DNA of 64,000 nucleotides from Candidatus Gaiellasilicea maunaloa. Its GTDB lineage: Bacteria; Actinomycetota; Thermoleophilia; Gaiellales; Gaiellaceae. The stretch is taken from positions 1-64,000 of the forward strand of contig JANDLU010000004.1 in NCBI GenBank assembly GCA_024330215.1, given 5' to 3'. How positions within the stretch are numbered: position 1 is the stretch's first letter; the number at the start of each line of letters is the position of its first letter. Below the pieces are notes generated by a model, which searched no databases, had not been told where the DNA came from, and saw nothing but the letters and a program-made list of their open reading frames with translations. Position numbers and translations under genes: made by a program. Shown here in pieces: positions 7,236 to 25,508 of the stretch.

Positions 7236-7247
7236 CCGATCCGACAG

Positions 7248-7320
<73 letters not shown>

Positions 7321-7334
7321 TCGGCACGATTGGA

Positions 7335-7363
7335 CGCAAACCCACCTCGTTAGCGGGGTTGCG
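7335..7363 (+). terminator. possible hairpin terminator after tRNA-Trp
   Basis: CGCAAACCC and GGGGTTGCG form a 9-bp stem with one mismatch around an 11-nt loop, 15 bp after the tRNA. There is no T tract, so this is tentative. Confidence 0.4.
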
Positions 7364-7479
7364 CCGCGGCGTCTGGAAAGGCGACGGGTCAGAGTGAATG
7401 AGGGGCGATCATCGGACGATGCGTATCGAGGCGACCCTGTTCCGTCAGAAGCGACGCACGGCCGATGCGCCTCACGTGC
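7364..7479. other. intergenic stretch with no clear feature
   Basis: Between the hairpin after tRNA-Trp and the first possible minus-strand ORF I see no convincing gene, repeat or promoter. Short ORFs crossing it are Arg/Ser-rich and look like GC-driven noise. Confidence 0.4.
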
Positions 7480-7656
7480 CTACGTGCCCGCGGGCACGAG
7501 ATCCCCGCTCCTCGAGTACGAGCCGTCCGGACGAGCCACCGCGCAGTCCCGCGTGTGCTCGGTCTGCCGGAGCCACGAAACGTCGACGCCCTTCCCCTCG
7601 GTCAGAAAGACGACCGCTAGTCGAGCGGGAGCATCGGACGCCGTCAGCCCTCGCAC
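7480..7656 (-). CDS. possible small protein overlapping the end of the thermonuclease gene
   Basis: A 58-residue ORF starting at a GTG that overlaps the thermonuclease stop codon region. The composition (AVVFLTEGKGVDVSWLRQTEH, then RDCAVARPDG) looks more protein-like than the neighbouring noise ORFs. It could be translationally coupled, or it could be part of a longer reading frame broken by the same indels as the gene upstream. No family recognised. Confidence 0.3.
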   Translation of the reverse strand: MRGLTASDAPARLAVVFLTEGKGVDVSWLRQTEHTRDCAVARPDGSYSRSGDLVPAGT

Positions 7657-8332
7657 CCGATGCCATCGTTGTCGCGGCCGTCGAACCCGTGGGGATCGCT
7701 GCCGACAACACGAATGTCTCTGAACGGGACATCGGCGCAATCGAGGTCGCCCACCTGGTCGTAGGGCGGGATGCATACATCTGGGTAAGACGAATCGCAG
7801 TTCGAGCGCGGCGGAGACGGCGACTTCACCGGTAGCTGCGCAGTTGCGGGGCCGCAGCGCCAGATGCTCCGGCTGAGCCGTCGTCCGGTCGCCTCTGCGG
7901 CCCGGTAGGCGGCGACGCGCTGAAACTCGCGTCCGTCGTAGACGTAGACCTTCGCGAAGCCGCCGGCGATCAACTGGTAGCCGAGGTCTTTGCCGTGCGG
8001 GAGCCATACGTAGGCGAGCAGCCGCCCGTAACGGTGCGTGTGTCCTGTGTCGGATCGCCGCGCAAGATGACTCGCTTCCCGTTGGCGAGGCGCTTCGCGG
8101 CGGCGGTGGCTGAATCCGCGTAACAGCCGCCGTGCTCGGGCGTGTCGATTCCGACGACCCGGACTCGCTCGGTTCTCAAGCCGATCTTCACATCGAGCGT
8201 GTCGCCGTCAACGACGTACGTAACCGTTCCGCTGTAGGTGAAGCTGCCTGACGTGGCCGCGGTCGCCGCGGCGACGACGACCATCGCGGCAGTGATCGCG
8301 GCGACGATAAACCGGAACCTCACGTACCCCAC
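7644..8332 (-). pseudogene. secreted thermonuclease (SNase-like) with excalibur tail, frameshifted
   Basis: The 5' frame encodes a signal peptide (FIVAAITAAMVVVAAATAA) and the SNase core VVDGDTLDV, RVRVVGIDTPEHGG and RVILRGDPTQDT. The reading frame is then lost and ends in 22 unrelated residues. The matching continuation (RYGRLLAYVWLPHGKDLGY, FAKVYVYDGREF, then an excalibur-like end with DLDCAD and DGIGCE) is in another frame. The break is at 8035-8045, where CGCACCG would read CGCGACCG with one extra G and restore DTRDRYGRLLAYV. All catalytic residues survive across the two frames. The ATG/GTG start could be the GTG at 8332 or an internal GTG. It is either a recent pseudogene or an assembly error. 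Confidence 0.8.
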
Positions 8333-8524
8333 ACTAGGTCGCCTTTGCCGAGCGTCAATGGGCCGCGTCGCTCATGTCACTGGGCCCGGCTCTGGCTTCC
8401 GCGACGGGACGGAAGCGGCGGGAGCGCGTGTCCCGGCTGCTCCGGCTGCGTCGCTTCGACTGCGATCTGTTCGGCCGCCGCAAGGCCGGAGAGCGTCGGC
8501 CGGAGCTCGGGCTACGATGGCCCG

Positions 8525-9295
8525 ATGTCCTCGTCGCGTATCCGGCTGACCCAGGGCTACCCGTATTTTGCCCGGGTCGTCTCGGTGGTTGCGGCCCGGC
8601 TCCCCCAGCACGTCCGGGACGAGTGCGAGTCGGAGGCGCTCTGCGCGATGGTCGAGGCGGCGGACGAGTGGCGAGACGGCGGCGCTCCGTTTCGACTGTT
8701 CGTCGCGGAGCGGATCAAGCAGCGGATGCTGGACGAGGCTCGGCGGGCCGATCGCGTGGACCGTTCGACGGGCAGCAGCCGGAACCCCTTGTCGCTCAGT
8801 TCGATCTTGATCGACGAGGAGGCCGGCGGCGAGACCCTCGCAGATCGTCTGGAGGCCACCGGGCCGGCCGCGGTCGATCCCCACTCGCGCGCGGTAGCCC
8901 TCGAGCGGCTCGAGGCGCTCGCCGCGCTCCCGGCGAGACTGAGGCTGGCGCTGACGCTCGACCGCGCGGACGCCTCGTCGGCGCTCGGCGTCTCGGTGGG
9001 ACACGTCGACAGGTTTCGCCGCACGGTTCGCGACGCGCTCGACGCGGAGAATCGGTCGCCGGCCGACGAGCTCGCGGCCTCCGGGATCGTCACGATCTCT
9101 CCGCGCGAGCTGACCGTACTCCGCTCGGTCTCGGGGGGCGCCACGAACGCCGAGATCGCCGACGATCTCGGCGTCTCGATCGAGACGATCAAGTCGCACG
9201 TCAAGCAGGTTCTCACCAAGCTCGAGGCACGCAGCCGAGCCCACGCCGTCCACCTCGCTTGGGAGGCGGACTGGTGGGACGTAGCGGCCGCGTGA
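8525..9295 (+). CDS. sigma-like protein fused to a LuxR-type HTH domain
   Basis: A 256-residue regulator. The C-terminus (about 190-250) is a LuxR/GerE DNA-binding domain: ISPRELTVLRSVSGGATNAEI, DDLGVSIETIKSHV, KQVLTKL. The N-terminal part resembles sigma region 2 of the FliA/WhiG type: DECESEALCAMVEAADEWR, then RIKQRMLDEARRADRVDRS at about 63-81. Residues 98-170 resemble a degenerate sigma region 4 (ETLADRLE, then LEALAALPARLRLALTL, then SALGVSVGHVDRFRRTV). There is no receiver domain. The ATG at 8525 was chosen because upstream codons look non-coding. It may be a sigma-derived regulator that has lost promoter-melting residues; its partners are unknown. Confidence 0.7.
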   Translation: MSSSRIRLTQGYPYFARVVSVVAARLPQHVRDECESEALCAMVEAADEWRDGGAPFRLFVAERIKQRMLDEARRADRVDRSTGSSRNPLSLSSILIDEEAGGETLADRLEATGPAAVDPHSRAVALERLEALAALPARLRLALTLDRADASSALGVSVGHVDRFRRTVRDALDAENRSPADELAASGIVTISPRELTVLRSVSGGATNAEIADDLGVSIETIKSHVKQVLTKLEARSRAHAVHLAWEADWWDVAAA

Positions 9296-9320
9296 CCCGA
9301 ACCGCGCTCGCGAGACCCGG

Positions 9321-10042
9321 CTAGGCTTCAGACGGCGATCGCGACCGGGTGGAACGACGGCCTCTCGGGCGAGCACCCGCTCGAGCGCCTCGACGCAGCC
9401 GGCGTCGAAGGCAGTGCCGGCCTCGCTCCGCAGGAGCGCGAGCGCGCGGTGGTGATCCCAGGCATCCCGGTCGACACGACGCGAGCGAAGCGCGTCGTAG
9501 ACGTCGCAGACCGTGAGGACGCGCGTTTCGAGCGGTAGCTCCGCGGCGGCCACGCCATGCGGGTAGCCGGCGCCGTCGAGCCGCTCGTGATGGTCTCGAA
9601 CGAGGCCGCGGACGCGGTGCGAGAACCCGAGCTCCCCGAGCAGCGCATGACCCGAGACCGGATGCCGGCGCACGATCTCGAACTCGCGCTCGTCGCGAGC
9701 TGGGCTTCTTCAGGATCTCGTCGGGGACGGACAGCTTGCCGATGTCGTGGAGGAGACCGTCGATCGCAAGCTCGCGCAGGCGCGAAGCCGGGAGCCCGAG
9801 CTCCTCGCCGACACGCACGGCAAGCAGAGCGACACGGCGCGTATGACCTTCGGTGTAGGAGTCCTTGTCAGCGAGGAGGCGAGTCAGGGAGCCGACCTGC
9901 GAGCCGAGGAACGCCTCCTCGGCGAAGACGAGCTCGGCGCCGCGGGGTCTCCCGCGAGAGGTCGAGAGGGCGCCGCACGCAGCAGGTCGAGCGCTAGGGC
10001 GCCGCCCGCCGCCAGAACCGGCACGTAGGTTTCTCGCCGCAC
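9321..10042 (-). pseudogene. HD-GYP domain protein (c-di-GMP phosphodiesterase-like), several frameshifts
   Basis: Pieces of one HD-GYP protein are spread over three frames. From GTG 10042 comes VRRETYVPVLAAGGALALDL. In a second frame follow ELVFAEEAFLGSQVGSLTRL, KDSYTEGHTRRVALLAVRV and GLLHDIGKLSVPDEILKKP, including the HD motif. In a third frame come EFEIVRRHPVSGHALLGELG and RDHHERLDGAGYPHG, the GYP signature, then FDAGCVEALERVL. The shifts lie near 9950-9990 and 9690-9700. The third frame has no stop until 8372, deep inside the opposite-strand sigma/LuxR gene, so its true end (9321-9330 in the other frames) is probably also shifted. The gene is almost certainly inactive. Confidence 0.8.
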
Positions 10043-10099
10043 GCGGTGACTATCGGCCGCTCGGCGACGCCTCTTGACCCCCGAAGGCAGGATCCCGGC

Positions 10100-10831
10100 A
10101 TGCAACTTCGATCCGAGACTGGCGAGGTGGCGGGCGTCCGTGTTCGCTGGCGGAGCACCGGCATGGGTCCACCGCTCGTCCTCGTGCACGGACTCGCAGG
10201 CTCGTGGCGGTGGTGGCGCCCAGTTCTCCCAGCGCTCGCGGCGGAGCACACGGTCCACCTGCTCGACCTGCCGGGCTTCGGCAGGATCCCGCAGGCGCGG
10301 GTCTTTCAGCTCGACCGTGCGCTCGACTGGCTCGCCGCCTGGGCCCGGGCCGCGACGCTCGGACCGGCGGACATCGTCGGTCACTCGCTCGGTGCCGTCA
10401 TCTGCGCGCGGCTCGCCGCGCGTCACTCCGAGACCGTGCGACGGCTCGTGCTCGTCGCGCCGGCCGGGGTTCCCGGTCGCACCGCGGCCGGGTCCGCGCT
10501 GCCGCTGGCACTCGAGCTCCTGCGTTCGCGGCCGCGCCTGCTCGCGCTGCTCGCGCGCGACTCGCTCCGCTCGGGGCCGCTCACGATCGGCACCGCCGCG
10601 CTCGCAGTCGTGGGCGCCGACCTGCGCTCCGACCTCCTGCGCGTCGAGGCTCCGACGCTCGTCCTGATGGGCGGTCGCGACGTGCTCGTTCCGGCCTGGC
10701 ACGGCGAGGAGCTCGCGCGCGCGCTCGCCGACGCGCGGGTCGTCGTGCTCGACGGTGCCGGACACGTGCCGATGATCGACGCGCCGGACGCGTTCAGTCG
10801 CGAGCTACTGGCCTTCCTAGGAAGCGACTGA
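10100..10831 (+). CDS. alpha/beta hydrolase
   Basis: A 243-residue alpha/beta-hydrolase fold enzyme. The oxyanion-hole strand is LVLVHGLAGSWRWWRPVLPA, the nucleophile elbow is VGHSLGAVI (Ser), the acid is in LMGGRDVLVPAW (Asp) and the base in DGAGHVPMID (His). No signal peptide. The ATG at 10100 was chosen over an earlier in-frame ATG because an AAGGCAGGA lies just upstream. Its 3' end overlaps the convergent hydrolase gene by 38 bp. The substrate (ester, lactone or haloacid) is not predictable. Confidence 0.85.
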   Translation: MQLRSETGEVAGVRVRWRSTGMGPPLVLVHGLAGSWRWWRPVLPALAAEHTVHLLDLPGFGRIPQARVFQLDRALDWLAAWARAATLGPADIVGHSLGAVICARLAARHSETVRRLVLVAPAGVPGRTAAGSALPLALELLRSRPRLLALLARDSLRSGPLTIGTAALAVVGADLRSDLLRVEAPTLVLMGGRDVLVPAWHGEELARALADARVVVLDGAGHVPMIDAPDAFSRELLAFLGSD

Positions 10832-11453
10832 GCTCTGCTGCGAGCTCGCGTGGGTGCGAGAAATGCACCGCGTGCCCGCCGCCCGCGATCGTCACGAGTC
10901 GGGCATTCGGGACCAGGGCCGTGACCTCCTCGCACCAGCGCGCGGGGCTGAGCGGATCGTGCTCGCCGCGGACGACGAGCGTCGGCGCCTCGATCCGCGG
11001 TAGCCGCTCCTCGATCCGGTCCTCGAGCGCGAAGCGCGCCTGCCGCATCAGCTCGACGGGCCCGATGCCGAAGTAGTCGCGCACGACGGTCGCGGTCAGG
11101 CGCGGCGGCTCGTACCAGCCGTCGAGCGCCAGTCTCAGCACGTGCCGACGGGCGCTGTGCGCCTGCGAATCGACGGTGGGGCCGACGAGGACCAGCGCCT
11201 CGACGAGCTCCGGCCGGCTGACGGCGAGGGCGGTCGCCACCTGGCAGCCCATCGAGTTGGCGACGAGCACCGCAGGGCCGGGGAGCGCCTCGCCGAGCCT
11301 GCGACCGAGCTCGGCGATCGGCTCCGGGTCGCGCAGCTCGGGACGGATCACCGCGCCCTCTAGCACCCGAGCCAGCGGCTCGAAATACGCCTGGCCGACG
11401 CCGAGACCGTGAACGAGGCAGAACACCGGCGGACCGTAGCGATACGCTCCCAC
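10794..11453 (-). CDS. alpha/beta hydrolase
   Basis: A 219-residue alpha/beta-hydrolase from the GTG at 11453; an in-frame start at 11492 is possible but would cross into the divergent carboxylase gene. Seen: the oxyanion strand [20 protein letters not shown], the elbow [11 protein letters not shown] (the first Gly of GxSxG replaced by Ala), the acid [11 protein letters not shown] and the base AGGGHAVHF. The protein lacks a large cap domain. The GTG starts of this gene and of the divergent carboxylase gene are 1 bp apart, so each promoter must lie inside the other gene or the true starts are internal. Function unknown beyond hydrolase. Confidence 0.8.
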
Positions 11454-11454
11454 C

Positions 11455-13020
11455 GTGGCTCTCCTCACCTCGACGCTCGAGCGCGACGGCACGTTCGCGG
11501 ATCGTGCGGCGCGGATGGAGGCGCTCGTCGCCGAGCTACGCGAGCGAACCGAGCTCGTGGCGCGCGGCGGCGGGGAGAGGTCGATCGAGCGGCATCGCTC
11601 GCGTGGGAAGCTGACCGCCCGCGAACGGATCGACCGGCTCGTCGATCCCGGTTCGGCATTCCTCGAGTTGAACGCGCTCGCCGCGTGGGAGCTCTACGAC
11701 GGCGCGGCGCCGTCGGCCGGGGTCGTCACGGGGATCGGCGTCGTCGAGGGCCGCGAGTGCGTGATCGTCGCGAACGACGCGACCGTCAAGGGCGGCACCT
11801 ATTTCCCCCTCACGGTCAAGAAGCACCTGCGCGCGCAGGAGGTGGCGCAGCAGAACCGGCTGCCCTGCATCTACCTCGTCGACTCGGGCGGTGCCTTCCT
11901 GCCCCTCCAGGACGAGGTCTTCCCGGACCGCGAGCACTTCGGCCGGATCTTCTTCAACCAGGCGCGGATGTCGGCGCTCGGGATCCCGCAGATCGCGGTG
12001 GTGATGGGTTCCTGCACAGCCGGCGGCGCCTACGTGCCGGCGATGTGCGACGAGACGATCATCGTCAAGGGGACCGGCACGATCTTCATCGGCGGGCCGC
12101 CGCTCGTGAAGGCCGCGACCGGCCAGGACGTGACTGCGGAGGAGCTCGGCGGCGCCGACGTCCACACGCGCCGCTCCGGGGTCGCCGACCACTACGCGAC
12201 CTCCGACGAGCACGCGCTGGCGCTCGCGCGCCAGATCGTTCGGCACGTACAACGGTGTACACCTACATCTACATCTCCCTGGGAGATCGCTCCACCCGAG
12301 CCACCGGCGCTCGACCCGTGCGACCTCTACGGGCTGATCCCGGAGGACTTCAAGCACGAGCTGGACCCGCACGAGCTGATCGCGCGGATCGTCGACGGCT
12401 CCCGCTTCGCCGAGTTCAAGGCGCTCTACGGCGAGACACTCGTCTGCGGCTTCGCGCGGCTCGAGGGCTACCCCGTCGGGATCCTCGCGAACAAGGGCGT
12501 CCTCTTCGCCGAGTCGGCGCAGAAGGGAGCACATTTCATCGAGCTCGCGTGCAAGCGGCGCGTGCCGCTCGTCTTCCTCCAGAACATCACCGGTTTCATG
12601 GTCGGCAAGGAGTACGAGGAAGGCGGGATCGCGCGCGACGGCGCGAAGCTCGTGATGGCGGTCGCCTGCGCAGACGTACCGAAGTTCACGGTCGTCACCG
12701 GCGGCTCGTTCGGCGCGGGCAACTACGCGATGTGCGGGCGCGCATACGCGCCGCGCCAGCTCTGGATGTGGCCGAACGCGCGGATCTCGGTGATGGGCGG
12801 CGAGCAGGCGGCGACGGTGCTCTCGCTGGTCGGCGACGCCGATCCGGAGGAGATCCGGGCCAAGTACGAAGCCGAGGGAAGCCCGTACTACTCGACGGCT
12901 CGTCTGTGGGACGACGGGATCATCGACCCGCACGACACGCGCCGCGTGCTCGCGCTCGGGATCTCGGCGGCGCTGAACGCTCCGATCCCCGAGTCCACGT
13001 TCGGCATCTTTCGAATGTAG
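11455..13020 (+). CDS. mccB: acyl-CoA carboxylase beta subunit (MccB/PccB family)
   Basis: A 521-residue carboxyltransferase subunit. The N-terminus has the typical [21 protein letters not shown] and [19 protein letters not shown]. The two crotonase-type halves hold [45 protein letters not shown] and, in the second half, [19 protein letters not shown] and [18 protein letters not shown]. This arrangement matches methylcrotonyl-CoA carboxylase beta (leucine catabolism) better than propionyl-CoA carboxylase. The biotin-carrying subunit is probably the MccA-like gene at 25532. A short unusual linker at residues 263-275 separates the halves. The small gene at 13034 is probably co-transcribed. Confidence 0.9.
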
Positions 13021-13322: not shown

Positions 13323-14882
13323 CTACCGGACGCGGAAGCTGCTCGAGCCGAGCACGCGGCCGAAGCGCGGCTGCTCGGGCGTCCCGTGGGCCGGAAAGAC
13401 GAACCAGCGATAGAGACCCGGGACGAGCAAGTGGCTCTTGCCGGCGAAGCTCCAGGTTCGCGCGAGGCGGGCCTTCGACACTCGCGGCCAGAAGCTGAGG
13501 ATCTTGACGCCCTTGCGATAGAGCTGGACGTTGTAGTAGCGCGCACCGCGGGCCGGCTCCCACTCGAGCAAGACCGGCGCCCGGACGACGGCGCCCTGTG
13601 CCGGCTGGTAGAGCGGCGGACGCGCTTCGGCCGTGACCGCTGTCTCCGTCGCGTTGCCGGCCTCGTCGGCCACGCGGAGCTCGTAGCGGTAGCGCACGCC
13701 CTTGCGCACGGTGCGGTCGACGAAGGTCTCCTTCGTGCCCCGGAAGACTTCGGTGCTGCGCCTGCCGTTCACGCCGGGGGAGCGGATGATCTGGACGCTG
13801 ATCGCATCGGCCGGCCGATCCCACGCGAGATGCGCGGCGCCCTTCGAGACCTCGGCCTTGACGGCCTTCAGCTTCGGCGCGGTCGCGTCGTACTTGAGCT
13901 CGAACGCGAGCTCACCGGCCGCGTTTCCGGCCACGTCGCGACAGCTCCCGGTCACGCTCGCGGCGCGCGCATCGGGTTTCTCGTAGCGCTTCGGGGCGGT
14001 GCACGACTCGACCCCGGACGTTCCGTCCGTGCCACTGAAACTGACGGTTACCGGCTTGCGGTACCAGCCGTTGCCATCGGGTGGCCGCTCGGCCGCGGCT
14101 CTGACCACCGGCGGACTCGCGTCGTACTTCAGTACAGCACTCGCAGGAGAGCTCGTGTTGCCGGCATTGTCGCGGCAGGTCACACCGACGGAAGCACCCG
14201 TGGTGTCCGGCCCCGCATAGGACGACGAGGTGCACGAGGCAACGCCCGAAACGCCGTCTGTGCCCGACCCGACCACCTTCACCGGAGAGCGGTACCACCC
14301 GCTTCCGTCCGCACCGCGCTCGGGCGAGGCGGTCACTGACGGCGCGGTCGCGTCGTACCTCAGGTTAGCCGAGCCGGTCGCGCTCGTGTTGCCGGCGTTG
14401 TCGGTGCACGTGCCCGAGACCGAAACGCTCGTCCCATCCGAGCCGCTGTACGTCGGGCTCGTGCACGAGGCGATTCCGGACGTCGCATCGCTGCCCGTGA
14501 AGGCCACCGCGACCGAGCGGTTGTACCAGTCGCCCGAGTCCGGGGGGCGTGAGGGCGAGCCGCCGGTGACCTGCGGCGGCGTCGCGTCCCGCTTGATCGA
14601 GACCGTGTTGCCAACGAACGGCGCGCCGTACCAGACCGTGCATGTGAAGGCTGCGCCAGTCGTGTCGGCGGAGACGGTGTTGACGTTGCAGCCTTGCGTC
14701 TGCGTGACACCGGCGGTGTCGTATGTCCACGAAACTGTCACGTCGGTCCGGAACCAGCCACCGCAATCGTCAGGGCCAGGCGAGCAATGAGCAGTCGGCT
14801 GGCTGGCGGCTAAACCTGGTTCGGGCGCAACGCCGAGCACCAATACGAGCGCAAGCAGCGTTCCGACCGCCAACCGCCTCAT
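13323..14882 (-). CDS. secreted multi-domain Ig-like/FnIII surface protein
   Basis: A 519-residue exported protein. The signal peptide is LAVGTLLALVLVLGVAPEPGLAAS (about residues 4-27). Then come about four tandem modules of 75-80 residues. Each opens with a 'RYDATAPSV'-like linker and carries 'WYRSPVKV..SGTDGVSGVASCTS' and 'C.DNAGNTS', with paired cysteines likely forming one disulfide per module. These resemble bacterial Ig-like (Big/HYR-type) domains. The C-terminal 190 residues contain an FnIII-like domain (AHLAWDRPADAISVQIIRS, then YRYELRVADEAGN) and a final beta-rich domain (LLEWEPARGARYYNVQLY). There is no anchor motif, so it is probably released or held by partners. Its ATG overlaps the stop of the anchored protein upstream (ATGA). 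Confidence 0.75.
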   Translation of the reverse strand: MRRLAVGTLLALVLVLGVAPEPGLAASQPTAHCSPGPDDCGGWFRTDVTVSWTYDTAGVTQTQGCNVNTVSADTTGAAFTCTVWYGAPFVGNTVSIKRDATPPQVTGGSPSRPPDSGDWYNRSVAVAFTGSDATSGIASCTSPTYSGSDGTSVSVSGTCTDNAGNTSATGSANLRYDATAPSVTASPERGADGSGWYRSPVKVVGSGTDGVSGVASCTSSSYAGPDTTGASVGVTCRDNAGNTSSPASAVLKYDASPPVVRAAAERPPDGNGWYRKPVTVSFSGTDGTSGVESCTAPKRYEKPDARAASVTGSCRDVAGNAAGELAFELKYDATAPKLKAVKAEVSKGAAHLAWDRPADAISVQIIRSPGVNGRRSTEVFRGTKETFVDRTVRKGVRYRYELRVADEAGNATETAVTAEARPPLYQPAQGAVVRAPVLLEWEPARGARYYNVQLYRKGVKILSFWPRVSKARLARTWSFAGKSHLLVPGLYRWFVFPAHGTPEQPRFGRVLGSSSFRVR

Positions 14883-15502
14883 GCCGCCAGCTCCCTCAGC
14901 GCGTGCCGCCCCGCGACCAACACGATCGTGCCGCCGAGCGCGGCGAGCGCGAGCACGGCTCCACCGAGCGCCAGCAGGCCGCGCTCGAGCGGCTCCGCAG
15001 CGGCGACGGCGCCGGCGAGCCGCGGCGCCAGAGGTTGATCGCGCGGCAGCGAGCGCGGCGCCGGAACGGTCTTCGCGATCGCCTTGGGCGTCGCCCGTCT
15101 CGCCGGCTTCGGCTTCGCCGGCTTGGGCTTCGCCGCCGGAGTCTTCGTTGCACGCGCGTCCACGTCTGGAGCCGCGCGCGGCGGCGCCGAGACCGCCGGG
15201 ACAACGACGGCCGGCGCAGGTTGCGAAATGCGAGGCTGCGCGGATCTGGCCGGAAGCTGGGCGGCTCTAGCCGGAGGCTGCGTCGTCGGAGGCTGCGTCT
15301 TCCGAGGCTGAGTCGTCCGAGGCTGAGTCGTCCGAGGCTGGGGCGTCTGGGCCGGAACCGGATCGGGAGCGACGGCGGATGGCGGCGGATCGGGCGTCGG
15401 CGACCCCGCGCCCGCGTTTCCGACCAGCGCGAGACAGAGGAGCAAGCCTCCGGTCGAAGCGCGCAATCGCCGCACTGACAACCTGTCCTGACGTGCTGGC
15501 AC
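14879..15502 (-). CDS. proline-rich protein with signal peptide and C-terminal membrane anchor
   Basis: A 207-residue protein. An N-terminal signal (STGGLLLCLALVGNAGAG) is followed by a long low-complexity Pro/Thr/Gln and Ala/Lys/Pro region, including five imperfect copies of a QPRTT pentapeptide. One membrane helix (LLALGGAVLALAALGGTIVLVAG) and a short basic tail (RHALRELAA) end the protein. This layout suits a wall-spanning tether. The gene starts at GTG and overlaps the next gene by 4 bp, so the two form one operon. Function is inferred from architecture only. Confidence 0.65.
   Translation of the reverse strand: MPARQDRLSVRRLRASTGGLLLCLALVGNAGAGSPTPDPPPSAVAPDPVPAQTPQPRTTQPRTTQPRKTQPPTTQPPARAAQLPARSAQPRISQPAPAVVVPAVSAPPRAAPDVDARATKTPAAKPKPAKPKPARRATPKAIAKTVPAPRSLPRDQPLAPRLAGAVAAAEPLERGLLALGGAVLALAALGGTIVLVAGRHALRELAA
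15271..15345 (+). repeat. 15-bp minisatellite, five units, in the proline-rich gene
   Basis: Five tandem 15-bp units with consensus TCCGAGGCTGAGTCG, the central ones identical. They encode the repeated QPRTT pentapeptide on the minus strand. The in-frame unit length allows copy-number change without frameshift. Confidence 0.8.
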
Positions 15503-15528
15503 CTCGCCCCCCTTGCTCCTTTCTCACG

Positions 15529-15557
15529 AAGCTACTGCGGTTTGCAGGTTGTGTCAA
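15529..15557 (-). promoter_or_regulatory. sigma-70-type promoter for the 15502-13323 operon
   Basis: On the minus strand TTGACA (15552-15557) and TAGCTT (15529-15534) are separated by 17 bp. This is the best -35/-10 pair seen in the region. It lies 27 bp upstream of the proline-rich gene. Confidence 0.65.
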
Positions 15558-15570
15558 TCGCAATGCCGGG

Positions 15571-15600
15571 CCGCAGGCCGGTCCCGGGACCGGCCTGCGG
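15571..15600 (-). terminator. perfect 30-bp palindrome, probable terminator of the repeat-protein gene
   Basis: CCGCAGGCCGGTCCC at 15571-15585 is followed at once by its exact reverse complement. It lies 15 bp after the stop of the 924-aa repeat protein and before the next promoter. There is no T tract. The stem is strong enough for a hairpin terminator, but a protein binding site is also possible. Confidence 0.6.
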
Positions 15601-15614
15601 ACTCGCACGTTCTC

Positions 15615-18389
15615 CTAGTTGTCGAGCCACCTCCCGTTCCTGGCGCCGAGCTGCAGCGCCGCCGACAGCGCAGCCGCAGCCTGGCGGTTCTTCGCCGACT
15701 GGCCGATCGCCTGGATCGCGATCCCGCCGCCGCCACCTTGAGCCTGGCTCGCACCCTGGCCGAGCCCGTTCAGGTTCGCGGCGGTCGCCGACGAGCCGAC
15801 GCTATTCGACTGGTTCGTCGAGCCGCCGGAGCCGTGGCTGCCGACGCCCACGGGCGTGTTGGAGTTACCGCCCGACAGGCAGCCGCACGTGTCGCGCCCG
15901 AAAGCCTGGATGGCCAACGAGGCGGCAAGCGCGCCCTGCTCGTTCTTTGCTTCCTGACCGATCGCCTGGATCCCGATCCCGCCGGCGCAGCCACAGCCGC
16001 CCGACTGGATCTGCCGGGCGGCCTGCCCCGTCAGGTTGACGTTCAGCGCCTTCGCATCCGAATCGACGCTGTTCGACTGCGATACGTCGCCGCCGTCGCC
16101 GTCACTTGCCACGGCCACCGGCGAGTTGCTGTTCGAGGCGCCGAGCTGGAATGCCCCGGACAGCGCGAGTGCCTCCTGTGCGTTCGACGCCGACTGGCCG
16201 ACCGCCTGGATCGCGATCCCACCCCCGCCGCCTTGAGCCTGGCTCGCGTACTGGCCGAGCCCGTTCAGGTTCGCGGCGGTCGCCGACGACGAGACATCGT
16301 TCGACTGCTCGACCGAGCCGCCGTTGCCGTCGCTCGCCACTCGCACCGGGGAGTTGTCGTTGCTCGCCCCGTCCTGGAGCGCGAACGAGAGGGCCGCGGC
16401 GCCCTGCACGCTCGTCGCCTGCTGACCGATCGCCTGGATGCCGATCCCGCTCGCGCAGCCACAGCCGCCCGACTGGACCTGCTCGGCACCCTGGCCGGTC
16501 AGGTTGACGTTCAGCGCGGTCGCATCCGACTCGACGCTCGACGACTGCGACACCTTGCCGCCGTCGCCGTCGCTCGCGACCCGCACCGGCGAGTTGCTGT
16601 TCGAGGCGCCGTACTGAAGCGCCGCCGACAGCCCGATCGCCGTCTGGTCGTTCGAGGCCGACTGACCGATCGCCTGGATGCCGCCCGAGCCGCCTTGAGC
16701 CTGGCTCGCGCCCTGGCCGAGGCCGTTCAGGTTCGCGGCGGTCGCCGACGAGGAGACGTCGTTCGACTGGTCGACCCAGCCGCCGTCGCCCTCGCTGTCC
16801 ACGCGGACGGGAGCGTTCGTGTTCCCACCCGAGCTGCAACCGCACTCGTCGCGACCGGGGGCCTGCACGGCCAGCGAACCCGCAAGCGCGCCCTGCGTGT
16901 TCGATGCGTTCTGGCCGATTGCCTGGATCCCGTTCGACCCACAGCGGCAGTCGCCGCCGCGCTGAGCCTGGCTCGCGCCCTGCTCGAGGCCGTTCAGGTT
17001 CGCGGCGGTCGCCGACGAGGAGACGTCGTTCGACTGCGTCACCTTGCCGCCGTCGCCGTCGCTCGCGACCCGCACCGGCGAGTTGCTGTTCGAGGCACCG
17101 TACTGCGGCGCCGCCGACAGCGCGATCGCCGTCTGGTCGTTCGAGGCCGACTGGCCGATCGCCTGCGTACCGCCGGAGCCACCCTGCCCCTGCCCGGCAC
17201 CCTGGCCGGTCAGGTTCAGGTTCCCCGCCGCCGCGGACGAACCGACGCTGTTCGACTGCGAGACGTTACCGTCGTCGCCGTCGCTGCCGACCCGGACCGG
17301 GGCGTTCGTGTTCGACGCACCGGATTGGGACGCACCCGAGAGGGCTGCTGCCGACTGCGTGTTCGCGGCATCCTGGCCGATCGCCTGGATTCCGCCCGAC
17401 CCGCAGCCGCAACCGCCGGCCTGAGACTGGCTCGCACCCTGCTCGAGCCCGTTCAGGTTCGCGGCCGTCGCCGACGAGGCGACGCTCGACGACTGCGAGA
17501 CGTTCCCGCCGGCCCCGGGGCTGAGAACCCGCACCGGGGTGTTCGTGTTGCTCGCGCCGTTCTGCCGAGCGGCGGAAAGAGCGCCCGCCGACTGGGCGTT
17601 GTCTGCATCCTGGCCGATCGCCTGGGTGCCACCGGAGCCACCCTGCGTCTGATCCGCGTCTTGCCCGGTCAGGTTCAGGTTTGCGGCCTTCGCGGACGAG
17701 TCGACGCTGTTCGACTGCTCGACCGAGCCGTCGTCGCCGGGGCTGAGAACGCGAACGGAGATGTTCGTGTTCGTCGCACCGCTCTGCTCGGCCGCCGACG
17801 CGGCTGCGGCTTCCTGCTCGCTGTCCGCATCCTGAGCGATCGCCTGCGTACCCGAGCCGCCGGCCGCCTGGTCGGCGTCCTGTCCCGTGGCGTTCAGATT
17901 CGCGGCGGTCGCGTCGGACTCGACGCTATTCGTCTGCGAGACGTCGCCGTCGTTCCCGGGGCTGAGAACCCGCACCGGGATGTTTGTGTTGCTCGCGCCG
18001 TCCTGCTTCGCGACGGAGAGCGCCTGCGCGGCCTGGCTCGAATCTGCCTCCTGGCCGATCGCCTGCGTGCCTCCCTCGCACCCGCACGGGCCGCTCTGCG
18101 TCTGGTCGGCCGACTGGCCGGTGAGGTTCGCGTTCGCCGCCGTCGCATCGGAAGCGACGGTGTTCGACTGCGAAACGTCACCGCTCGAGCCGGGACTCAG
18201 AACGCGAACGGAGATGTTCTGGTTCGTCGGTTGACTCTGCGAGGCGCCCGACAGGGTCCCCGCAGCCTGGCCGCTCGAGGCAGCCTGGCCGGCCGCCTGA
18301 GCGGCAGGATCTCCCGACTCGGCCGCCGCCTGGCCCGCGCCCACGAGGAGCCCGAGCGTCGCGGCGGCAACCGCGAGTATCCGTTTCAT
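15615..18389 (-). CDS. secreted Gln/Asn/Ser-rich protein with 11 tandem repeats
   Basis: A 924-residue exported protein. The signal peptide is ILAVAAATLGLLVGAGQAAAES. Then follow 11 repeats of about 73-88 residues. Each has a core like 'NTNxPVRVxSxGDxGxVxQSNxV', a second unit 'SxATAANLNxxGQxASQxQGG' and a third 'GIQAIGQxAxNxQxAxALSxAxQxGAS'. Regularly spaced Gln, Asn and Ser and alternating small hydrophobics suggest a beta-solenoid or a curli-like amyloid, as CsgA repeats also space Gln and Asn. CxC pairs (for example GGCGCGSGG) sit in loops of some repeats. There is no membrane anchor; the protein ends GRWLDN. The start has a strong AAGGAGAG. It is 76 bp downstream of the partner gene at 18466, so probably in the same unit. 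No named family recognised. Confidence 0.75.
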   Translation of the reverse strand: MKRILAVAAATLGLLVGAGQAAAESGDPAAQAAGQAASSGQAAGTLSGASQSQPTNQNISVRVLSPGSSGDVSQSNTVASDATAANANLTGQSADQTQSGPCGCEGGTQAIGQEADSSQAAQALSVAKQDGASNTNIPVRVLSPGNDGDVSQTNSVESDATAANLNATGQDADQAAGGSGTQAIAQDADSEQEAAAASAAEQSGATNTNISVRVLSPGDDGSVEQSNSVDSSAKAANLNLTGQDADQTQGGSGGTQAIGQDADNAQSAGALSAARQNGASNTNTPVRVLSPGAGGNVSQSSSVASSATAANLNGLEQGASQSQAGGCGCGSGGIQAIGQDAANTQSAAALSGASQSGASNTNAPVRVGSDGDDGNVSQSNSVGSSAAAGNLNLTGQGAGQGQGGSGGTQAIGQSASNDQTAIALSAAPQYGASNSNSPVRVASDGDGGKVTQSNDVSSSATAANLNGLEQGASQAQRGGDCRCGSNGIQAIGQNASNTQGALAGSLAVQAPGRDECGCSSGGNTNAPVRVDSEGDGGWVDQSNDVSSSATAANLNGLGQGASQAQGGSGGIQAIGQSASNDQTAIGLSAALQYGASNSNSPVRVASDGDGGKVSQSSSVESDATALNVNLTGQGAEQVQSGGCGCASGIGIQAIGQQATSVQGAAALSFALQDGASNDNSPVRVASDGNGGSVEQSNDVSSSATAANLNGLGQYASQAQGGGGGIAIQAVGQSASNAQEALALSGAFQLGASNSNSPVAVASDGDGGDVSQSNSVDSDAKALNVNLTGQAARQIQSGGCGCAGGIGIQAIGQEAKNEQGALAASLAIQAFGRDTCGCLSGGNSNTPVGVGSHGSGGSTNQSNSVGSSATAANLNGLGQGASQAQGGGGGIAIQAIGQSAKNRQAAAALSAALQLGARNGRWLDN

Positions 18390-18465
18390 CGATCCCTCTC
18401 CTTCTTCTTTCTCAGAGTTGGGTTGGGCGGCAGACTCCCGCCCGGACTGGGAAGCAGAGGGTTCG

Positions 18466-20091
18466 CTAGCCCGGCCGCTCTCGCCTCGAGCTCTCCACCT
18501 GCGCCACGACGCCGGAGACTCCGCGCGTGACGCGACGCGCGGTATCGGCGAAGGCGAAGGCGAAGGGAATCAGGAGCAGAAGCAGGAAACCACCGTCGCC
18601 GCCCGAGCTCGGCCCGATGCCTCCCAGGCCCATCGCGGCGGCCGGCACCCGTTCGGGCTCCGAAGGCAGCCGGACCGGCGGGTGGACGAGAGCGCGTTTG
18701 GCGTGCGCGCTGGCGGCCGGGGGTCGAGCCGCCGCGCCCGGGAGCTTGCGTGCCGGCGCGCTCACGGAATGCGTCCAGACGGACGCCATGACGACCGGCG
18801 TCGCGGCAGCGTCGGGAATCCTCCTCGCCGTGCGTCGGACGACGACAGCTCGATCCGGCGGGCTGCTCAGCAGGCCGATGCTCCTGCCGCGCACGGGCCT
18901 GTCCATTTCGAGCTCGACGACCTCGTCTCCCCAGACGAGCTCGAGCACCGTGGCGGCGACCGCGCCGGTCAACTCGACGAGTGCCATCGGTTCCATCGGC
19001 GGCGCGGTCGGCGCATCGTCCAGCGCAGAGCTCGAGGATGGCTCCGGCGGCACGAAGACCGCAGCCACGGCCGCTGTCGCAATCGTGGCGGCTTCTGCGA
19101 CGGCCGTGGCCGCAGAAACCGCGGCCACGGTGGCGACGGTGGCGACCGCCAGGTTCGCCTGCACCACCGGCCCGTTGTCACCCGGACTGCCGATCCGGAT
19201 CGAGACGTTGATATTGACAGGCTGATACCGCCTTGTACTCGTTTGATACTGGCCCGGTGATTGCGCGGCGATATTCTGAGTTGCCCGATCTTCTCCACCG
19301 CAATTCCAATCCCAGTTCCAGTTCCAGTTCGCTGGTATCGATCCACCGGGCGGGAGCTGCGAGAGAGAAACACCAGGGCCGGAATCGTCGCAACCCCAGG
19401 TCCACGTCCAGGTCTCGCCGTTCGGTAGCGGCTGCGCATCCGGGACGAGCTGCCCCGAGACGGCAGGTGCGGCAGCAGCCGACACCGCAGGCTTCGCCGC
19501 AGGCCCCGTCAGCGCTGGTGCGGAGCCGGGCGCGAGGACGGTCACCGGCGAGTCGGCCTGGCTCACATTTAGCTGCGCAACCGCGCCGTCGTTCCCCGGG
19601 CTCTCGACCCGGACGGACACGTTCACGTTGACGGGCCGCACCTGGGAAGCCGGCGTGGCGACTGTCGCCGGCTCGTCGGGACTAACAGCCATCGCCGGCA
19701 GCGCCTCGTCTTCGGCAGTATCAACCGGATCGGGCGTAGTATCAGGTGTTTGTGGCTCGGCGACATGCATCTCTACGGGCGGCGGCGCGGCTTCTGCCGA
19801 TGCGGGCTCTGCCGGTACGGCCGGCGTCGGCTCTGGGGAGTGCGCGACATGAGTCTCGACCATGGCCGACTCCGCAACTGCGACGACGGCAGTCGCGATC
19901 GCCGACGCCTCAGCTGCGACCGCCGCCGCTTCGGGGAGCGCCTGCGCCTGCGGCAGCACCGGCGTCGTCCCCTCCGCGGCAGCTCCGGACGACACGAACG
20001 ACGCGGCGATGACGAGAGTCATCGCTGCGATCGCCGCGCGCCGGAACCTCGAACGCGCTCGAACAGTGATCACAGGTAGTAAATACCCCAC
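18466..20091 (-). CDS. membrane-anchored surface protein sharing the repeat core
   Basis: A 541-residue protein starting at GTG. It has an Arg-rich n-region and signal/hydrophobic segment (AAIAAMTLVIAASFVSSGAAAE). Long Ala/Pro/Glu-rich linkers carry two copies of the core seen in the large repeat protein: VNVNVSVRVESPGNDGAVAQL and VNINVSIRIGSPGDNGPVVQ. Between them is a Trp/Asn-alternating stretch (TWTWTWGCDD and ANWNWNWDWNCGG) with two Cys. A Gly-rich spacer, a membrane helix (FLLLLLIPFAFAFA) and a 25-residue basic tail end the protein. It may anchor or nucleate the repeat protein. It is divergent from the sigma factor gene; the shared intergenic region is AT-richer than its surroundings. 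Confidence 0.7.
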   Translation of the reverse strand: MGYLLPVITVRARSRFRRAAIAAMTLVIAASFVSSGAAAEGTTPVLPQAQALPEAAAVAAEASAIATAVVAVAESAMVETHVAHSPEPTPAVPAEPASAEAAPPPVEMHVAEPQTPDTTPDPVDTAEDEALPAMAVSPDEPATVATPASQVRPVNVNVSVRVESPGNDGAVAQLNVSQADSPVTVLAPGSAPALTGPAAKPAVSAAAAPAVSGQLVPDAQPLPNGETWTWTWGCDDSGPGVSLSQLPPGGSIPANWNWNWDWNCGGEDRATQNIAAQSPGQYQTSTRRYQPVNINVSIRIGSPGDNGPVVQANLAVATVATVAAVSAATAVAEAATIATAAVAAVFVPPEPSSSSALDDAPTAPPMEPMALVELTGAVAATVLELVWGDEVVELEMDRPVRGRSIGLLSSPPDRAVVVRRTARRIPDAAATPVVMASVWTHSVSAPARKLPGAAARPPAASAHAKRALVHPPVRLPSEPERVPAAAMGLGGIGPSSGGDGGFLLLLLIPFAFAFADTARRVTRGVSGVVAQVESSRRERPG

Positions 20092-20158
20092 TCGCTTCTC
20101 GTTGATCCATTTTCTTTGCTTTGGCTCAATTCAGGAAATCGAAGTTGCATAGTTCAGC

Positions 20159-20192
20159 TTGGAATTCATGTGTCGACAAGTTATGTTCGACA
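20159..20192 (+). promoter_or_regulatory. promoter and operator of the SigB/SigF-type sigma gene
   Basis: TTGGAA (20159-20164) and TATGTT (20182-20187) are 17 bp apart. An inverted repeat TGTCGACA (20171-20178) / TGTTCGACA (20184-20192) covers the spacer and -10, as expected for a repressor site. Transcription would start at about 20194-20196, on the GTG itself, giving a leaderless mRNA. Confidence 0.55.
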
Positions 20193-20195
20193 TAC

Positions 20196-20918
20196 GTGAG
20201 CGACGGGATGCCAACCGAGACCGATCAGCTTCTGCAGGCATGGTGCGACGAAGGAGATGCCGATGCCCGCGCGCAATTGATCGAGCGGCACCTGCCGCTC
20301 GTCCGAGCGCTCGCGCGGCGCTTCTCGCACCGGGGCGAGCAGCTCGACGATCTCGTCCAGGCGGGGTCGCTCGGGCTGATCAAGGCGGTCGACCGCTACG
20401 ATCCCGGTCGCGGCTCGTCGCTGGCTGCCTATGCGATCCCGACGATCGTCGGCGAGATCCAGCGCTACCTTCGCGACAGTGCCTCCACGGTGAGGCTGCC
20501 TCGCCGACAGCAGGAGCTCGCCGTCGAGCTCGCCCGGCAGAGCGATGCGCTTGCGGCCGAGCACGGTCGGACCCCCACGCTCCGGGAGCTCGCAGCGGCG
20601 ACAGCGCTTCCCTCGGACGAGGTCGCCACTGCGCTCGCCGACGTCGCAGCCGCTCGGCCGGTGGCGCTCGATGAGAACACCGAGGAAGCCGAGGACGCAG
20701 GGGCCGCACACCGGCTCGAGCTCGGAGTCGAGCGCGTCATGCTCGCACGAGGACTTCGGCGGCTCGACCACCGCGAGCGCCGGATCGTGCAGCTGCGCTA
20801 CTTCGGGGGCCTCAGCCAGCGCGGGATCGCCGCCGAGGTCGGGCTTTCGCAAGTGCACGTCAACAGGCTGCTGACCCGGTCGCTCGGCAAGCTCCGCCGG
20901 GAGATCGGCCAGACGTAG
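20196..20918 (+). CDS. RNA polymerase sigma factor, SigB/SigF/SigG group
   Basis: A 240-residue sigma-70 group 3 factor. Region 2: IERHLPLVRALARRFSHRGE, LDDLVQAGSLGLIKAVDRYDP, and SSLAAYAIPTIVGEIQRYLRD. Region 3: RLPRRQQELAVELAR and GRTPTLRELAAATAL. Region 4: LDHRERRIVQLRYFGGLSQRG and AAEVGLSQVHVNRLL. The GTG at 20196 is preferred because the promoter places the transcript start there; an ATG at 20208 is the alternative. No anti-sigma or anti-anti-sigma gene lies beside it. Its neighbours suggest it controls the divergent surface genes, but no matching promoter motif is proven. Confidence 0.9.
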   Translation: MSDGMPTETDQLLQAWCDEGDADARAQLIERHLPLVRALARRFSHRGEQLDDLVQAGSLGLIKAVDRYDPGRGSSLAAYAIPTIVGEIQRYLRDSASTVRLPRRQQELAVELARQSDALAAEHGRTPTLRELAAATALPSDEVATALADVAAARPVALDENTEEAEDAGAAHRLELGVERVMLARGLRRLDHRERRIVQLRYFGGLSQRGIAAEVGLSQVHVNRLLTRSLGKLRREIGQT

Positions 20919-20951
20919 CGGCTCCGGCGCAGTGATACCACTCCGAAACGT

Positions 20952-20980
20952 TTGGCTGGATCGTTTCAAGGTCGTACAAT
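20952..20980 (+). promoter_or_regulatory. promoter for leaderless RHH-membrane gene
   Basis: TTGGCT (20952-20957), a 17-bp spacer, then TACAAT (20975-20980). The ATG begins 7 bp after the -10 box, so the transcript should be leaderless. Confidence 0.7.
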
Positions 20981-20987
20981 CCTCGGT

Positions 20988-21326
20988 ATGGGCAGCCGCG
21001 CAGCCCCTGCAGAGCTCATCGCCGCCGACGACCGTGAGAAAGCGCCGAGTGGACGGCTGCTGCTCCGGATGCCGCGGACGCTTCATGCCGAGCTCGCCCG
21101 CGCAGCCGAACGGGAGGGAACGAGCCTGAACGGGTTCATCACCGGCTCGCTCGCCAGCACGATCGGCTGGCGAGGCGAGGACGGCGACTCGCCGGCCCTC
21201 AGCTCTGCGCCGGCGGGACGGCGCCAGACGAGGCTCCTGCTGGCCGTGCTCCTTGCGAACGCCGTCGTCGTCGGCGTCGCCGCGGTCGCCGCGGTCGGGA
21301 TCCTGCTCCTCGCCTGGCTGGGCTGA
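20988..21326 (+). CDS. ribbon-helix-helix (HicB-like) protein with C-terminal membrane helix
   Basis: A 112-residue protein. Residues 21-60 (SGRLLLRMPRTLHAELARAA, then REGTSLNGFITGSLASTIG) match the ribbon-helix-helix fold of Arc/HicB-type DNA binders. After a polar linker, residues 83-110 form one strong membrane helix (LLLAVLLANAVVVGVAAVAAV). A membrane-tethered RHH protein is unusual, and there is no HicA toxin gene beside it. It lies 70 bp after the sigma factor gene on the same strand but has its own promoter. It may act on the operator in the nearby divergent region; this is inference. Confidence 0.75.
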   Translation: MGSRAAPAELIAADDREKAPSGRLLLRMPRTLHAELARAAEREGTSLNGFITGSLASTIGWRGEDGDSPALSSAPAGRRQTRLLLAVLLANAVVVGVAAVAAVGILLLAWLG

Positions 21327-23970: not shown

Positions 23971-24008
23971 GAGGGTTGGCGACGAACGACGTTCCGTCAA
24001 ACCCTCCT
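23969..24008. terminator. bidirectional terminator between convergent genes
   Basis: AGGAGGGTT (23969-23977) and AACCCTCCT (24000-24008) form a 9-bp perfect stem, extended by partial pairing around a GACGAACGACGTTC-like loop. It overlaps the stop codons of both convergent genes. The same arm sequence recurs at 25346 and 25496. Confidence 0.7.
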
Positions 24009-25326
24009 AGAGCTTCTTACGCGGGCGGACGGTGACGGCGCCGCCCGCGACCTGCGGCGACGCGAGCCTGTAGCTCGTCGTCCGGAGCGGTGCGACGGCC
24101 ACCGCGAAGCGGCCGTCGACCCTCGTCCGGATCCGCTTCACGGTCGTCCAGGTGCCACCGTTCACCTGCTGCTCGAGCCGCACCTTCGTGAGTCCGCGCA
24201 CGAACCCCGTCAGACGAAGCTGACGGCTCGCGAGAGCGCTGAGAAGCGGCGGATCGAGATTCAGCACCCGCACCGAGAACCAGGTCGAGCGAAGGTTGAA
24301 ACTGCGACGGAAATCCTGCCCCTCGATTCGCTTGAGGCCGTCTCCCACCTTGACTGTGACCTCCGTGACGCGGCCCGAGGCGGTCCGCTCGACGAGCAGA
24401 TCGCGCACGTCGCGCGTTCCGGTCAGCGTCTCGACCTCGGCAGGCGTCATCCTGAAAGGACCCCAGCGGTGATGCTTGGAGATGTTGTCGTAGGGATCCG
24501 GAACCGAGACGAGGTAGGGCACCACCCTCGCCTTCGGCCAGACATCGGCAACGGATGCGGTGCGGCCGCCCGAGGTCGAGTGGTAGAACGTCGTCGCAAC
24601 GCGGTTCTGCCAGAGCAGGGCGCGGCCCGCGGTGGCGCCGATCGCGCGGTTGGTCGAGTCCTCCTCGGCGCGGATGCCCCCATAGACCTGGCTGCGCGTG
24701 TCGGCGTAGAGATCGAAGAGCTTGCCCGGTTTCAGCGTCGCGAGCGCGTAGGAACGCGCGACGACAGCCTGCGCCCTGAGCGCCGCCGGATGCCAGTCGT
24801 CGGGCATCTCCCAGGGCACGACGCCGCGCAGGTAGCGATCGAGGGGCAGGTCGTTGACGACGAGCAGCGAGCCGCCCTGGCGGTGGACGACGAGCGCGCC
24901 ACGATAGCCGGCTCCGTCGAGCTGAAGCGGCACAACACCGGCCTCGAAGCGGAGCGGCGCCCGCAACCCCCTCAGGAGCAGCCCCGAGGCGGCGAGCGTG
25001 CGTGCGCCCGGTTTCAGCTTCCGCACCCTGCCGGTGGCGTCGACGACCCTGAACGGCTTCGTGGACGAGATCTGCACGGCCGGCCTGCCCTCGACGAGCA
25101 GGACGCGCACCGGCCTCGTGGGGACGAGCCGGAGCTTCGTGCCCCGGTAGTAGTGGGCGAGGATGCGCGCGTGGCCCCAGCCGGCCTCCGCGTAGCCGCG
25201 CGCCCCGTACTGGCTCATCCCGACCCCGTGTCCCCAGCCGCGACCGTCGATCACGAAAACCGTGCCGGCGCTCGCCGGCGTTGCGCACGCGAGCGCAACG
25301 GCGAGGCTAATGAGAAGACGCCGCAT
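24007..25326 (-). CDS. secreted SpoIID/LytB-domain protein
   Basis: A 439-residue exported protein. The signal peptide is MRRLLISLAVALACATPASA. The SpoIID domain shows DGRGWGHGVGMSQYGARG, YRGALVVHRQGGSLLVVNDL, LDRYLRGVVPWEMPDDWHP, ALRAQAVVARSYAL and TSGGRTAS. SpoIID of Bacillus is a lytic transglycosylase, and homologues without sporulation remodel the cell wall. The unusual N-terminal placement of the WGHGVGMSQYGA motif is common in actinobacterial members. A C-terminal beta-rich region (about 330-439) may bind the wall. The ATG at 25326 starts the signal peptide; an upstream in-frame extension is not convincing. Confidence 0.88.
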   Translation of the reverse strand: MRRLLISLAVALACATPASAGTVFVIDGRGWGHGVGMSQYGARGYAEAGWGHARILAHYYRGTKLRLVPTRPVRVLLVEGRPAVQISSTKPFRVVDATGRVRKLKPGARTLAASGLLLRGLRAPLRFEAGVVPLQLDGAGYRGALVVHRQGGSLLVVNDLPLDRYLRGVVPWEMPDDWHPAALRAQAVVARSYALATLKPGKLFDLYADTRSQVYGGIRAEEDSTNRAIGATAGRALLWQNRVATTFYHSTSGGRTASVADVWPKARVVPYLVSVPDPYDNISKHHRWGPFRMTPAEVETLTGTRDVRDLLVERTASGRVTEVTVKVGDGLKRIEGQDFRRSFNLRSTWFSVRVLNLDPPLLSALASRQLRLTGFVRGLTKVRLEQQVNGGTWTTVKRIRTRVDGRFAVAVAPLRTTSYRLASPQVAGGAVTVRPRKKL

Positions 25327-25345
25327 CCGGCGCCCCACGCTACCA

Positions 25346-25508
25346 GGAGGGTTTGGCGAAATACGGCTGTGCCCGCCTCGGCACACTGGGCACGCCGTGG
25401 CGGCGTCCTCAGTCGCGTCCATACCTACAGGTATGAACGCTCCCTGCGTCCTTGCCACAGAGCACCCATCGCACCGATCCGGACGAGCGGCATTCCGCCA
25501 AACCCTCC
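25346..25508. repeat. inverted GGAGGGTTTGGCG repeats flanking the SpoIID/mccA intergenic region
   Basis: GGAGGGTTTGGCG at 25346-25358 and its reverse complement at 25496-25508 (13 bp perfect, 137 bp apart). The 9-bp inner part is also the terminator stem at 23969-24008, and AACCCTCCT occurs at 21326-21334. It looks like a dispersed element used at gene ends. Confidence 0.65.
25420..25435. promoter_or_regulatory. perfect palindrome upstream of mccA, possible operator
   Basis: CATACCT-AC-AGGTATG, 7-bp arms, 97 bp before the ATG of the carboxylase alpha gene, in a gene-free gap. Its size fits a TetR/GntR/MerR-type site. No regulator gene lies beside it. Confidence 0.4.

What the first reader, a model, noticed from the sequence alone, without database searches (positions are those of the whole stretch)
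13323..21326. Candidate undescribed surface-fibre or matrix system with its own regulators
Four secreted or anchored proteins lie together: an Ig-like/FnIII protein, a Pro-rich tether, an 11-repeat Gln/Asn protein, and an anchored protein sharing the repeat core. Next to them are a divergent SigB/SigF-type sigma factor and a membrane-tethered RHH protein. Seen directly: the signals, anchors, repeats and shared motif. Inference: a regulated surface structure, possibly amyloid-like, perhaps made under stress or in a developmental state.
Basis: partly seen in the sequence, partly recalled or inferred. Interest (0 to 1): 0.85.

Follow-up and report, generated by a model that had tools for sequence, protein, structure and literature searches.

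The report
Regulated amyloid-like surface fibre locus
A group of soil actinobacteria carries an undescribed, conserved gene cluster that probably builds a repeat-protein fibre or matrix on the cell surface, seeded by a membrane anchor and run by its own sigma factor, which in some species is fused to a membrane-anchored DNA-binding domain.

Summary
The 11 repeats average 65% identity and are real coding sequence. No Pfam, NCBIfam or PDB-sequence family covers the repeat, anchored or tether proteins. Fifteen have a divergent SigB/F-type sigma gene, 13 of them with the HicB/RHH protein. In four genomes sigma and RHH are one reading frame. AlphaFold2 models three repeats as long beta strands (pLDDT 80); the best PDB hit is the functional amyloid FapC, by local geometry only. 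Conserved Gln/Asn/Ala lie on one face of each strand. CsgG and curlin repeats are absent. Best reading: a new functional-amyloid-like surface fibre, with the anchored protein as nucleator. Amyloid state, secretion route, regulation, and any stress or developmental role are untested. Interest 0.70; new variant of a known kind.

The parts
15615..18389 (-). Repeat (fibre/matrix) protein P0001, 924 aa, signal sequence, 11 imperfect 73-89-residue units (units span 15618-18224)
   Evidence: profile repA E 2e-259; 86% identical ortholog in L047
17247..17990 (-). Three-unit stretch (residues 134-381) modelled by AlphaFold2 as long beta strands, pLDDT 80.3, pTM 0.68
18466..20091 (-). Membrane-anchored partner P0002, 541 aa: signal, two copies of the repeat core, two Trp-rich segments, C-terminal TM and basic tail ending ERPG; likely nucleator/anchor
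   Evidence: 59% identical ortholog in L047
19567..19629 (-). First copy of the shared core, NVNVSVRVESPGNDGAVAQLN
19153..19215 (-). Second copy of the shared core, NINVSIRIGSPGDNGPVVQAN
18469..18543 (-). C-terminal tail TARRVTRGVSGVVAQVESSRRERPG after the TM; ends PG like the anchored partners at other loci
   Evidence: no other TM-plus-PG ORF end among the pattern sites fetched from G000
20121..20918 (+). Divergent SigB/SigF/SigG-type sigma factor P0003 (likely start ATG 20208)
   Evidence: cluster sigmas fall outside the main chromosomal SigBFG paralog clade
20952..21326 (+). HicB/RHH protein P0004 with C-terminal TM (likely start ATG 20988); an Asn in the TM is present in 19 of 19 relatives aligned
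14879..15502 (-). Pro-rich tether P0006: signal, Pro-rich spacer, C-terminal TM; overlaps the fn3 gene by 4 bases
   Evidence: matches to relatives are low-complexity and weak
13323..14882 (-). Ig-like/FnIII secreted protein P0005 with a conserved C-terminal domain
   Evidence: present at 12 of 25 repeat loci

Best explanation
The locus encodes a dedicated cell-surface fibre or matrix system. (1) Inferred from the signal sequence: P0001 is exported by Sec. (2) Predicted: each 73-89-residue repeat folds as one layer of two long beta strands plus a short one, and layers stack as a cross-beta fibre held by inward-facing Gln/Asn/Ala ladders, as in the functional amyloids FapC and CsgA. (3) Inferred: the membrane-anchored protein P0002, which displays two copies of the same core, seeds the fibre and holds it on the membrane, the part played by CsgB/FapB plus an anchor. 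(4) Inferred: the Ig/FnIII protein and Pro-rich tether are accessory surface parts. (5) Inferred from divergent gene order and natural fusions: the sigma factor transcribes the locus, and the RHH-TM protein holds the sigma factor or its operator DNA at the membrane, so that transcription is tied to the envelope. Shown: gene content, repeats, anchors, conservation, fusions. Not shown: fibre formation, nucleation, promoter control.
For: Conserved core: an anchored partner lies just upstream on the same strand in 22 of 25 repeat loci (G104 counted by hand). Of 20 low-Arg ORFs of 150 aa or more ending in PG among 279 in the fetched loci, 19 are such partners. Regulators: sigma at 15 loci, RHH at 13 of those; single-frame sigma-RHH in G236, G249, G283 and L049, with Pfam sigma and HicB domains in one ORF for L049, G249 and G236. 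Fold: pLDDT 80.3, pTM 0.68; best PDB hit FapC 9u4u, E 2.3e-4, prob 0.66, with CsgA structures at ranks 5 and 15. In type A units all 14 conserved non-Gly positions of the two long strands lie on one face; type B 15/16 and 10/12. FapC is held by conserved Asn/Gln networks (PMC12392863). CsgB and FapB share repeats with the major subunit and nucleate it (PMC12822426).
Against: The FapC match is local geometry only: TM-score 0.15, rmsd 32.6, and the other PDB hits are weak. The type B repeat model failed (pLDDT 45.7), though its strand pattern is similar. Repeat-window alignments can bias AlphaFold2 towards stacked models. No sequence link to any solved structure. Sigma/RHH and fn3 are missing at several loci with long flanks (G004 C200, G028, G066, G263, G249b, G283b), so the regulators are optional. 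RHH-TM plus fn3 occurs without repeat or sigma in G209. No clear SigB-type promoter was found in the divergent gap.
Confidence: 0.55

Rival explanations
1. A repeat-built surface adhesin or stalk with a soluble beta-solenoid fold (like filamentous adhesins or ice-binding proteins), accompanied by P0002 but not self-assembling as amyloid.
For: Beta-rich model; weaker PDB hits include ice-binding proteins, pectate lyases and adhesins; one relative (G023) ends in an LPFTG-type sorting signal, i.e. wall anchoring.
Against: The only PDB hit below E 1e-3 is an amyloid. A separate anchored protein bearing the same core fits nucleation better than a self-contained adhesin. The conserved face is Gln/Asn/Ala rather than bulky hydrophobic.
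Confidence: 0.25
2. A low-complexity, disordered Gln/Asn/Ser/Gly-rich matrix protein; the beta model is an artefact of stacking repeat windows.
For: Composition A 18, G 16, S 14.5, Q 10, N 8%; failed type B model; low Foldseek TM-scores.
Against: Strict alternation of conserved residues with one face conserved in two repeat types, and 65% unit identity, are not expected of a disordered spacer; pLDDT above 70 over most of three units.
Confidence: 0.12
3. The sigma and HicB/RHH genes are neighbours by chance (HicB as a toxin-antitoxin remnant), not regulators of the surface genes.
For: HicB-type RHH proteins are common in the class (58 of 299 genomes at E<=1e-4); sigma/RHH absent at several repeat loci.
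Against: Same divergent order in many genera; sigma-RHH single ORFs in four genomes; the TM version with its constant Asn is a distinct family found mostly at these loci.
Confidence: 0.08

Closest known systems
Fap system (FapC/FapB, Pseudomonas)
   Same: Imperfect repeats with conserved Asn/Gln/Gly; a second protein with the same repeats (FapB) nucleates; best PDB hit of the model is FapC 9u4u (PMC12392863, PMC12822426)
   Different: Units of 73-89 residues (11 in P0001) instead of three of 38-39; no sequence match to PDB chains, which include FapC; no fap-like partner genes recognised; partner held by a TM; Actinomycetota
Curli (CsgA/CsgB)
   Same: Secreted Q/N-rich repeat subunit plus a surface-held minor partner sharing the repeat; weak Foldseek hits to CsgA
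   Different: No CsgG and no Curlin_rpt match in 13 repeat-bearing genomes; Gln spacing in the second strand is 10 (Q49/Q59/Q69; type B Q64/Q74/Q84), not the QX10Q of CsgA
Chaplins of Streptomyces
   Same: Secreted actinobacterial surface amyloids with anchored and free forms (general knowledge, not tested)
   Different: No ChpA-C match, though no control genome rang, so inconclusive; chaplins are short (general knowledge)
SigB/SigF stress and sporulation sigma factors
   Same: P0003 is TIGR02980-like with regions 2, 3 and 4
   Different: Below the family cut-off; paired or fused with RHH-TM; outside the main paralog clade
HicB antitoxins
   Same: RHH domain, in some relatives with an N-terminal HicB/UPF0150-like domain
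   Different: C-terminal TM with a constant Asn; next to or fused with sigma

Membership tests
Curli system | Curlin repeats (PF07012) in the fibre subunit | tested here: not met
   (E. coli control rings)
Curli system | CsgG secretion pore (PF03783) | tested here: not met
   0 of 13 repeat-bearing genomes; controls ring
Fap system | FapC/FapB repeat by sequence | tested here: not met
   profile of the repeats finds no PDB chain at E<=5, although FapC structures are in the PDB; the published FapBC HMM itself was not on hand
Fap system | fapA, D, E, F partner genes | tested here: inconclusive
   none recognised among neighbours with local models and Pfam scans; no Fap models were run
Functional bacterial amyloid (as a kind) | Secreted imperfect-repeat subunit predicted to stack as cross-beta layers | tested here: inconclusive
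   type A model pLDDT 80 with FapC as best hit but TM-score 0.15; type B pLDDT 46
Functional bacterial amyloid (as a kind) | Surface-held partner sharing the repeats | tested here: met
   (sharing and anchor seen in sequence; surface location inferred)
Functional bacterial amyloid (as a kind) | Fibres, ThT/Congo red binding, cross-beta diffraction | not testable with these tools
   needs purified protein
SigB/SigF/SigG sigma factors | TIGR02980 above cut-off | tested here: not met
   217.6 against 234.35 bits; still the best family, E 1.8e-64
HicB antitoxin family | HicB RHH domain above Pfam cut-off | tested here: met
   36.5 against 21 bits
HicB antitoxin family | Adjacent HicA toxin | tested here: inconclusive
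   none noticed among ORFs of 80 aa or more beside P0004; HicA proteins can be shorter and no HicA model was run
Chaplins | ChpA-C domain (PF03777) | tested here: inconclusive
   no match, but no control rang

The most novel reading that the evidence does not exclude
A new lineage of functional amyloid, specific to Thermoleophilia, whose membrane-anchored nucleator carries a dedicated C-terminal (E/D)RPG-type tail, and whose expression is driven by a sigma factor that is itself membrane-tethered, through a HicB/RHH partner or by direct sigma-RHH-TM fusion: a class of regulator for which I found no description.
Probability: 0.35. Interest if true: 0.88.

Novelty: new variant of a known kind. 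Interest (0 to 1): 0.7.

Why it matters
If right, it adds an amyloid-like fibre system to a class of abundant, little-cultivated soil actinobacteria; a recent GTDB-wide survey of curli and Fap operons does not mention Actinomycetota (PMC12822426). It would be a separate solution to the same fibre problem. The sigma-RHH-TM fusions would be a direct, testable case of a sigma factor held in the membrane by its own chain.

Tried and rejected
SigB-type promoter search in the divergent gap and its relatives gave no clear site. The first ERPG pattern search in the own genome missed TAG stops and was repeated. Curli and chaplin membership. Sequence search of PDB with both repeat profiles: nothing. Weak Pfam hits to P0001 and relatives (OST_P2, EB1_binding, Agd3_C and others) rejected as composition-driven. 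Viral structure library: only weak hits, some named 'Curlin associated'. The second AlphaFold job, on type B repeats, failed. A phylum-wide search found one weak hit outside the class (G483, E 3.8e-7), not followed. The long antisense ORF 15513-18530 (+) was set aside as a mirror of the GC-rich repeats. Literature searches for sigma-HicB fusions, membrane-tethered sigma factors or Thermoleophilia amyloid found nothing relevant, in an open-access library only.

Full report
What is there. Gaps suggest two transcripts from one short divergent region (P0002 start 20091; likely sigma start 20208); this is inference. P0001 has 11 units at 73-89-residue spacing, mean identity 65%. P0002 holds two copies of the same core. 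Codon-position differences from the nearest relative show a constrained coding gene.

Families. Pfam and NCBIfam know the sigma (SigB/F/G type, below cut-off) and the HicB/RHH domain, and give weak Ig-like hits to P0005. P0001 has one sub-threshold, composition-type hit and P0002 and P0006 have none. Relatives of the repeat and anchored proteins likewise give no convincing family.

Recurrence. In Thermoleophilia, 18 of 299 sampled genomes carry type A repeats (NxNxxVRVxSPG...) and 13 of 299 carry type B (NxNxPVxIxGG...GCGG); a phylum-wide sample found one weak hit outside the class. Named records include Gaiella sp. FR_16, a Thermoleophilaceae and a Solirubrobacteraceae MAG. I scored neighbours with local profile HMMs over 25 repeat loci.

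The core pair. At 22 of the 25 loci a protein with a late membrane helix, a basic tail and a C-terminal Pro-Gly lies just upstream of the repeat gene on the same strand (G104 was added by hand, its helix scoring just under my cut-off). I searched for the PG end, so the ending itself is a selection criterion; the point is that such ORFs are rare otherwise: 20 of 279 low-Arg ORFs in the fetched loci end in PG, and 19 of the 20 are these partners. Fourteen of the 22 end in (E/D)RPG. Among (D/E)RPG-stop-like sites fetched from G000, G135 and G249, only the window gene and the G249 cluster gene are ends of such ORFs. The exceptions are second repeat loci in G249 and G283 and a contig-edge case, G258.

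Optional modules. Fifteen loci have sigma, counting L047 where only part of it lies on the contig. RHH accompanies it at 13; it is missing in G025 and beyond the contig end in L047. Fn3 is present at 12. A LuxR-type response regulator appears at five (G004 C141, G006, G199, G204, G258). Several loci with long flanks have none of these.

Sigma-RHH fusion. In G249, G283, L049 and G236 sigma and RHH lie in one ORF. Pfam finds sigma regions and HicB in the same protein for L049, G249 and G236; G283 was read from its translation and local profiles. The ORF continues into a TM in G249, G283 and L049. In G236 the contig ends inside the RHH domain, and another contig of that genome (L062) carries the matching RHH and TM. 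In L049 an internal ATG before the HicB part could also give a separate product. The RHH-TM family keeps an Asn in the TM helix in 19 of 19 sequences. Searching from the RHH side also finds sigma plus HicB-RHH-TM in G262, G235 and G021, and RHH-TM beside fn3 without sigma or repeats in G209. On a tree, cluster sigmas fall outside the main chromosomal SigBFG paralog clade (94/98) but are not resolved as one clade, and some paralog rows are fragments on long branches.

Fold. Three P0001 units modelled with 31 aligned windows give long strands at pLDDT 80.3, pTM 0.68. Foldseek's only PDB hit under E 1e-3 is FapC (9u4u); CsgA structures come at ranks 5 and 15 with weak scores, among SufB/D and others. 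TM-scores are low, so this is likeness of local geometry, not of whole fold. The type B model is unreliable. [quoted passage not shown] FapC is reported to be held by conserved Asn/Gln networks (PMC12392863), and in curli and Fap a minor subunit with the same repeats nucleates (PMC12822426). CsgG and curlin repeats are absent from 13 repeat-bearing genomes.

Promoter. A SigB-type consensus scan of the divergent gap in the window and relatives gave no convincing site, so sigma control of the surface genes rests on gene order and fusion only.

Verdict. Most likely it is an amyloid-like surface fibre with a membrane-held nucleator and a dedicated, membrane-linked sigma switch. The structural and regulatory steps are predictions that ordinary bench tests can settle.

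Noticed in passing
window 6024-6905 (-): A second sigma-factor-like gene in the window (profile E 5e-35), distant from the cluster sigma.
   Followed up: partly
window 8345-9295 (+): ORF with similarity to the LuxR-type response-regulator profile (E 9e-8).
   Followed up: no
window 15513-18530 (+): 1005-aa antisense ORF mirroring the repeat gene; looks like an artefact of high GC and regular repeats.
   Followed up: no
G000 contig C65 (L026:3-2528): The same genome has a second, large anchored protein of this kind (841 aa, ends DTRPG) on a 4.6 kb contig whose edge cuts it.
   Followed up: partly
L028 (G023) 4110-6593 (-): A type B repeat protein ends in an LPFTG-like sorting signal with TM, suggesting sortase anchoring in that species.
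   Followed up: no
L068 (G209) 6081-12176: Two sets of fn3 protein, TM tether and HicB-RHH-TM without sigma or repeat protein, so RHH-TM may also serve fn3/tether modules.
   Followed up: partly
window 24007-25458 (-): Protein with a SpoIID-like opening (GWGHGVGMSQYGA) near the cluster; recognised by eye only.
   Followed up: no
L101 (G483:C137:11779-11931): Only hit to the type A repeat outside Thermoleophilia in the phylum sample (E 3.8e-7).
   Followed up: no
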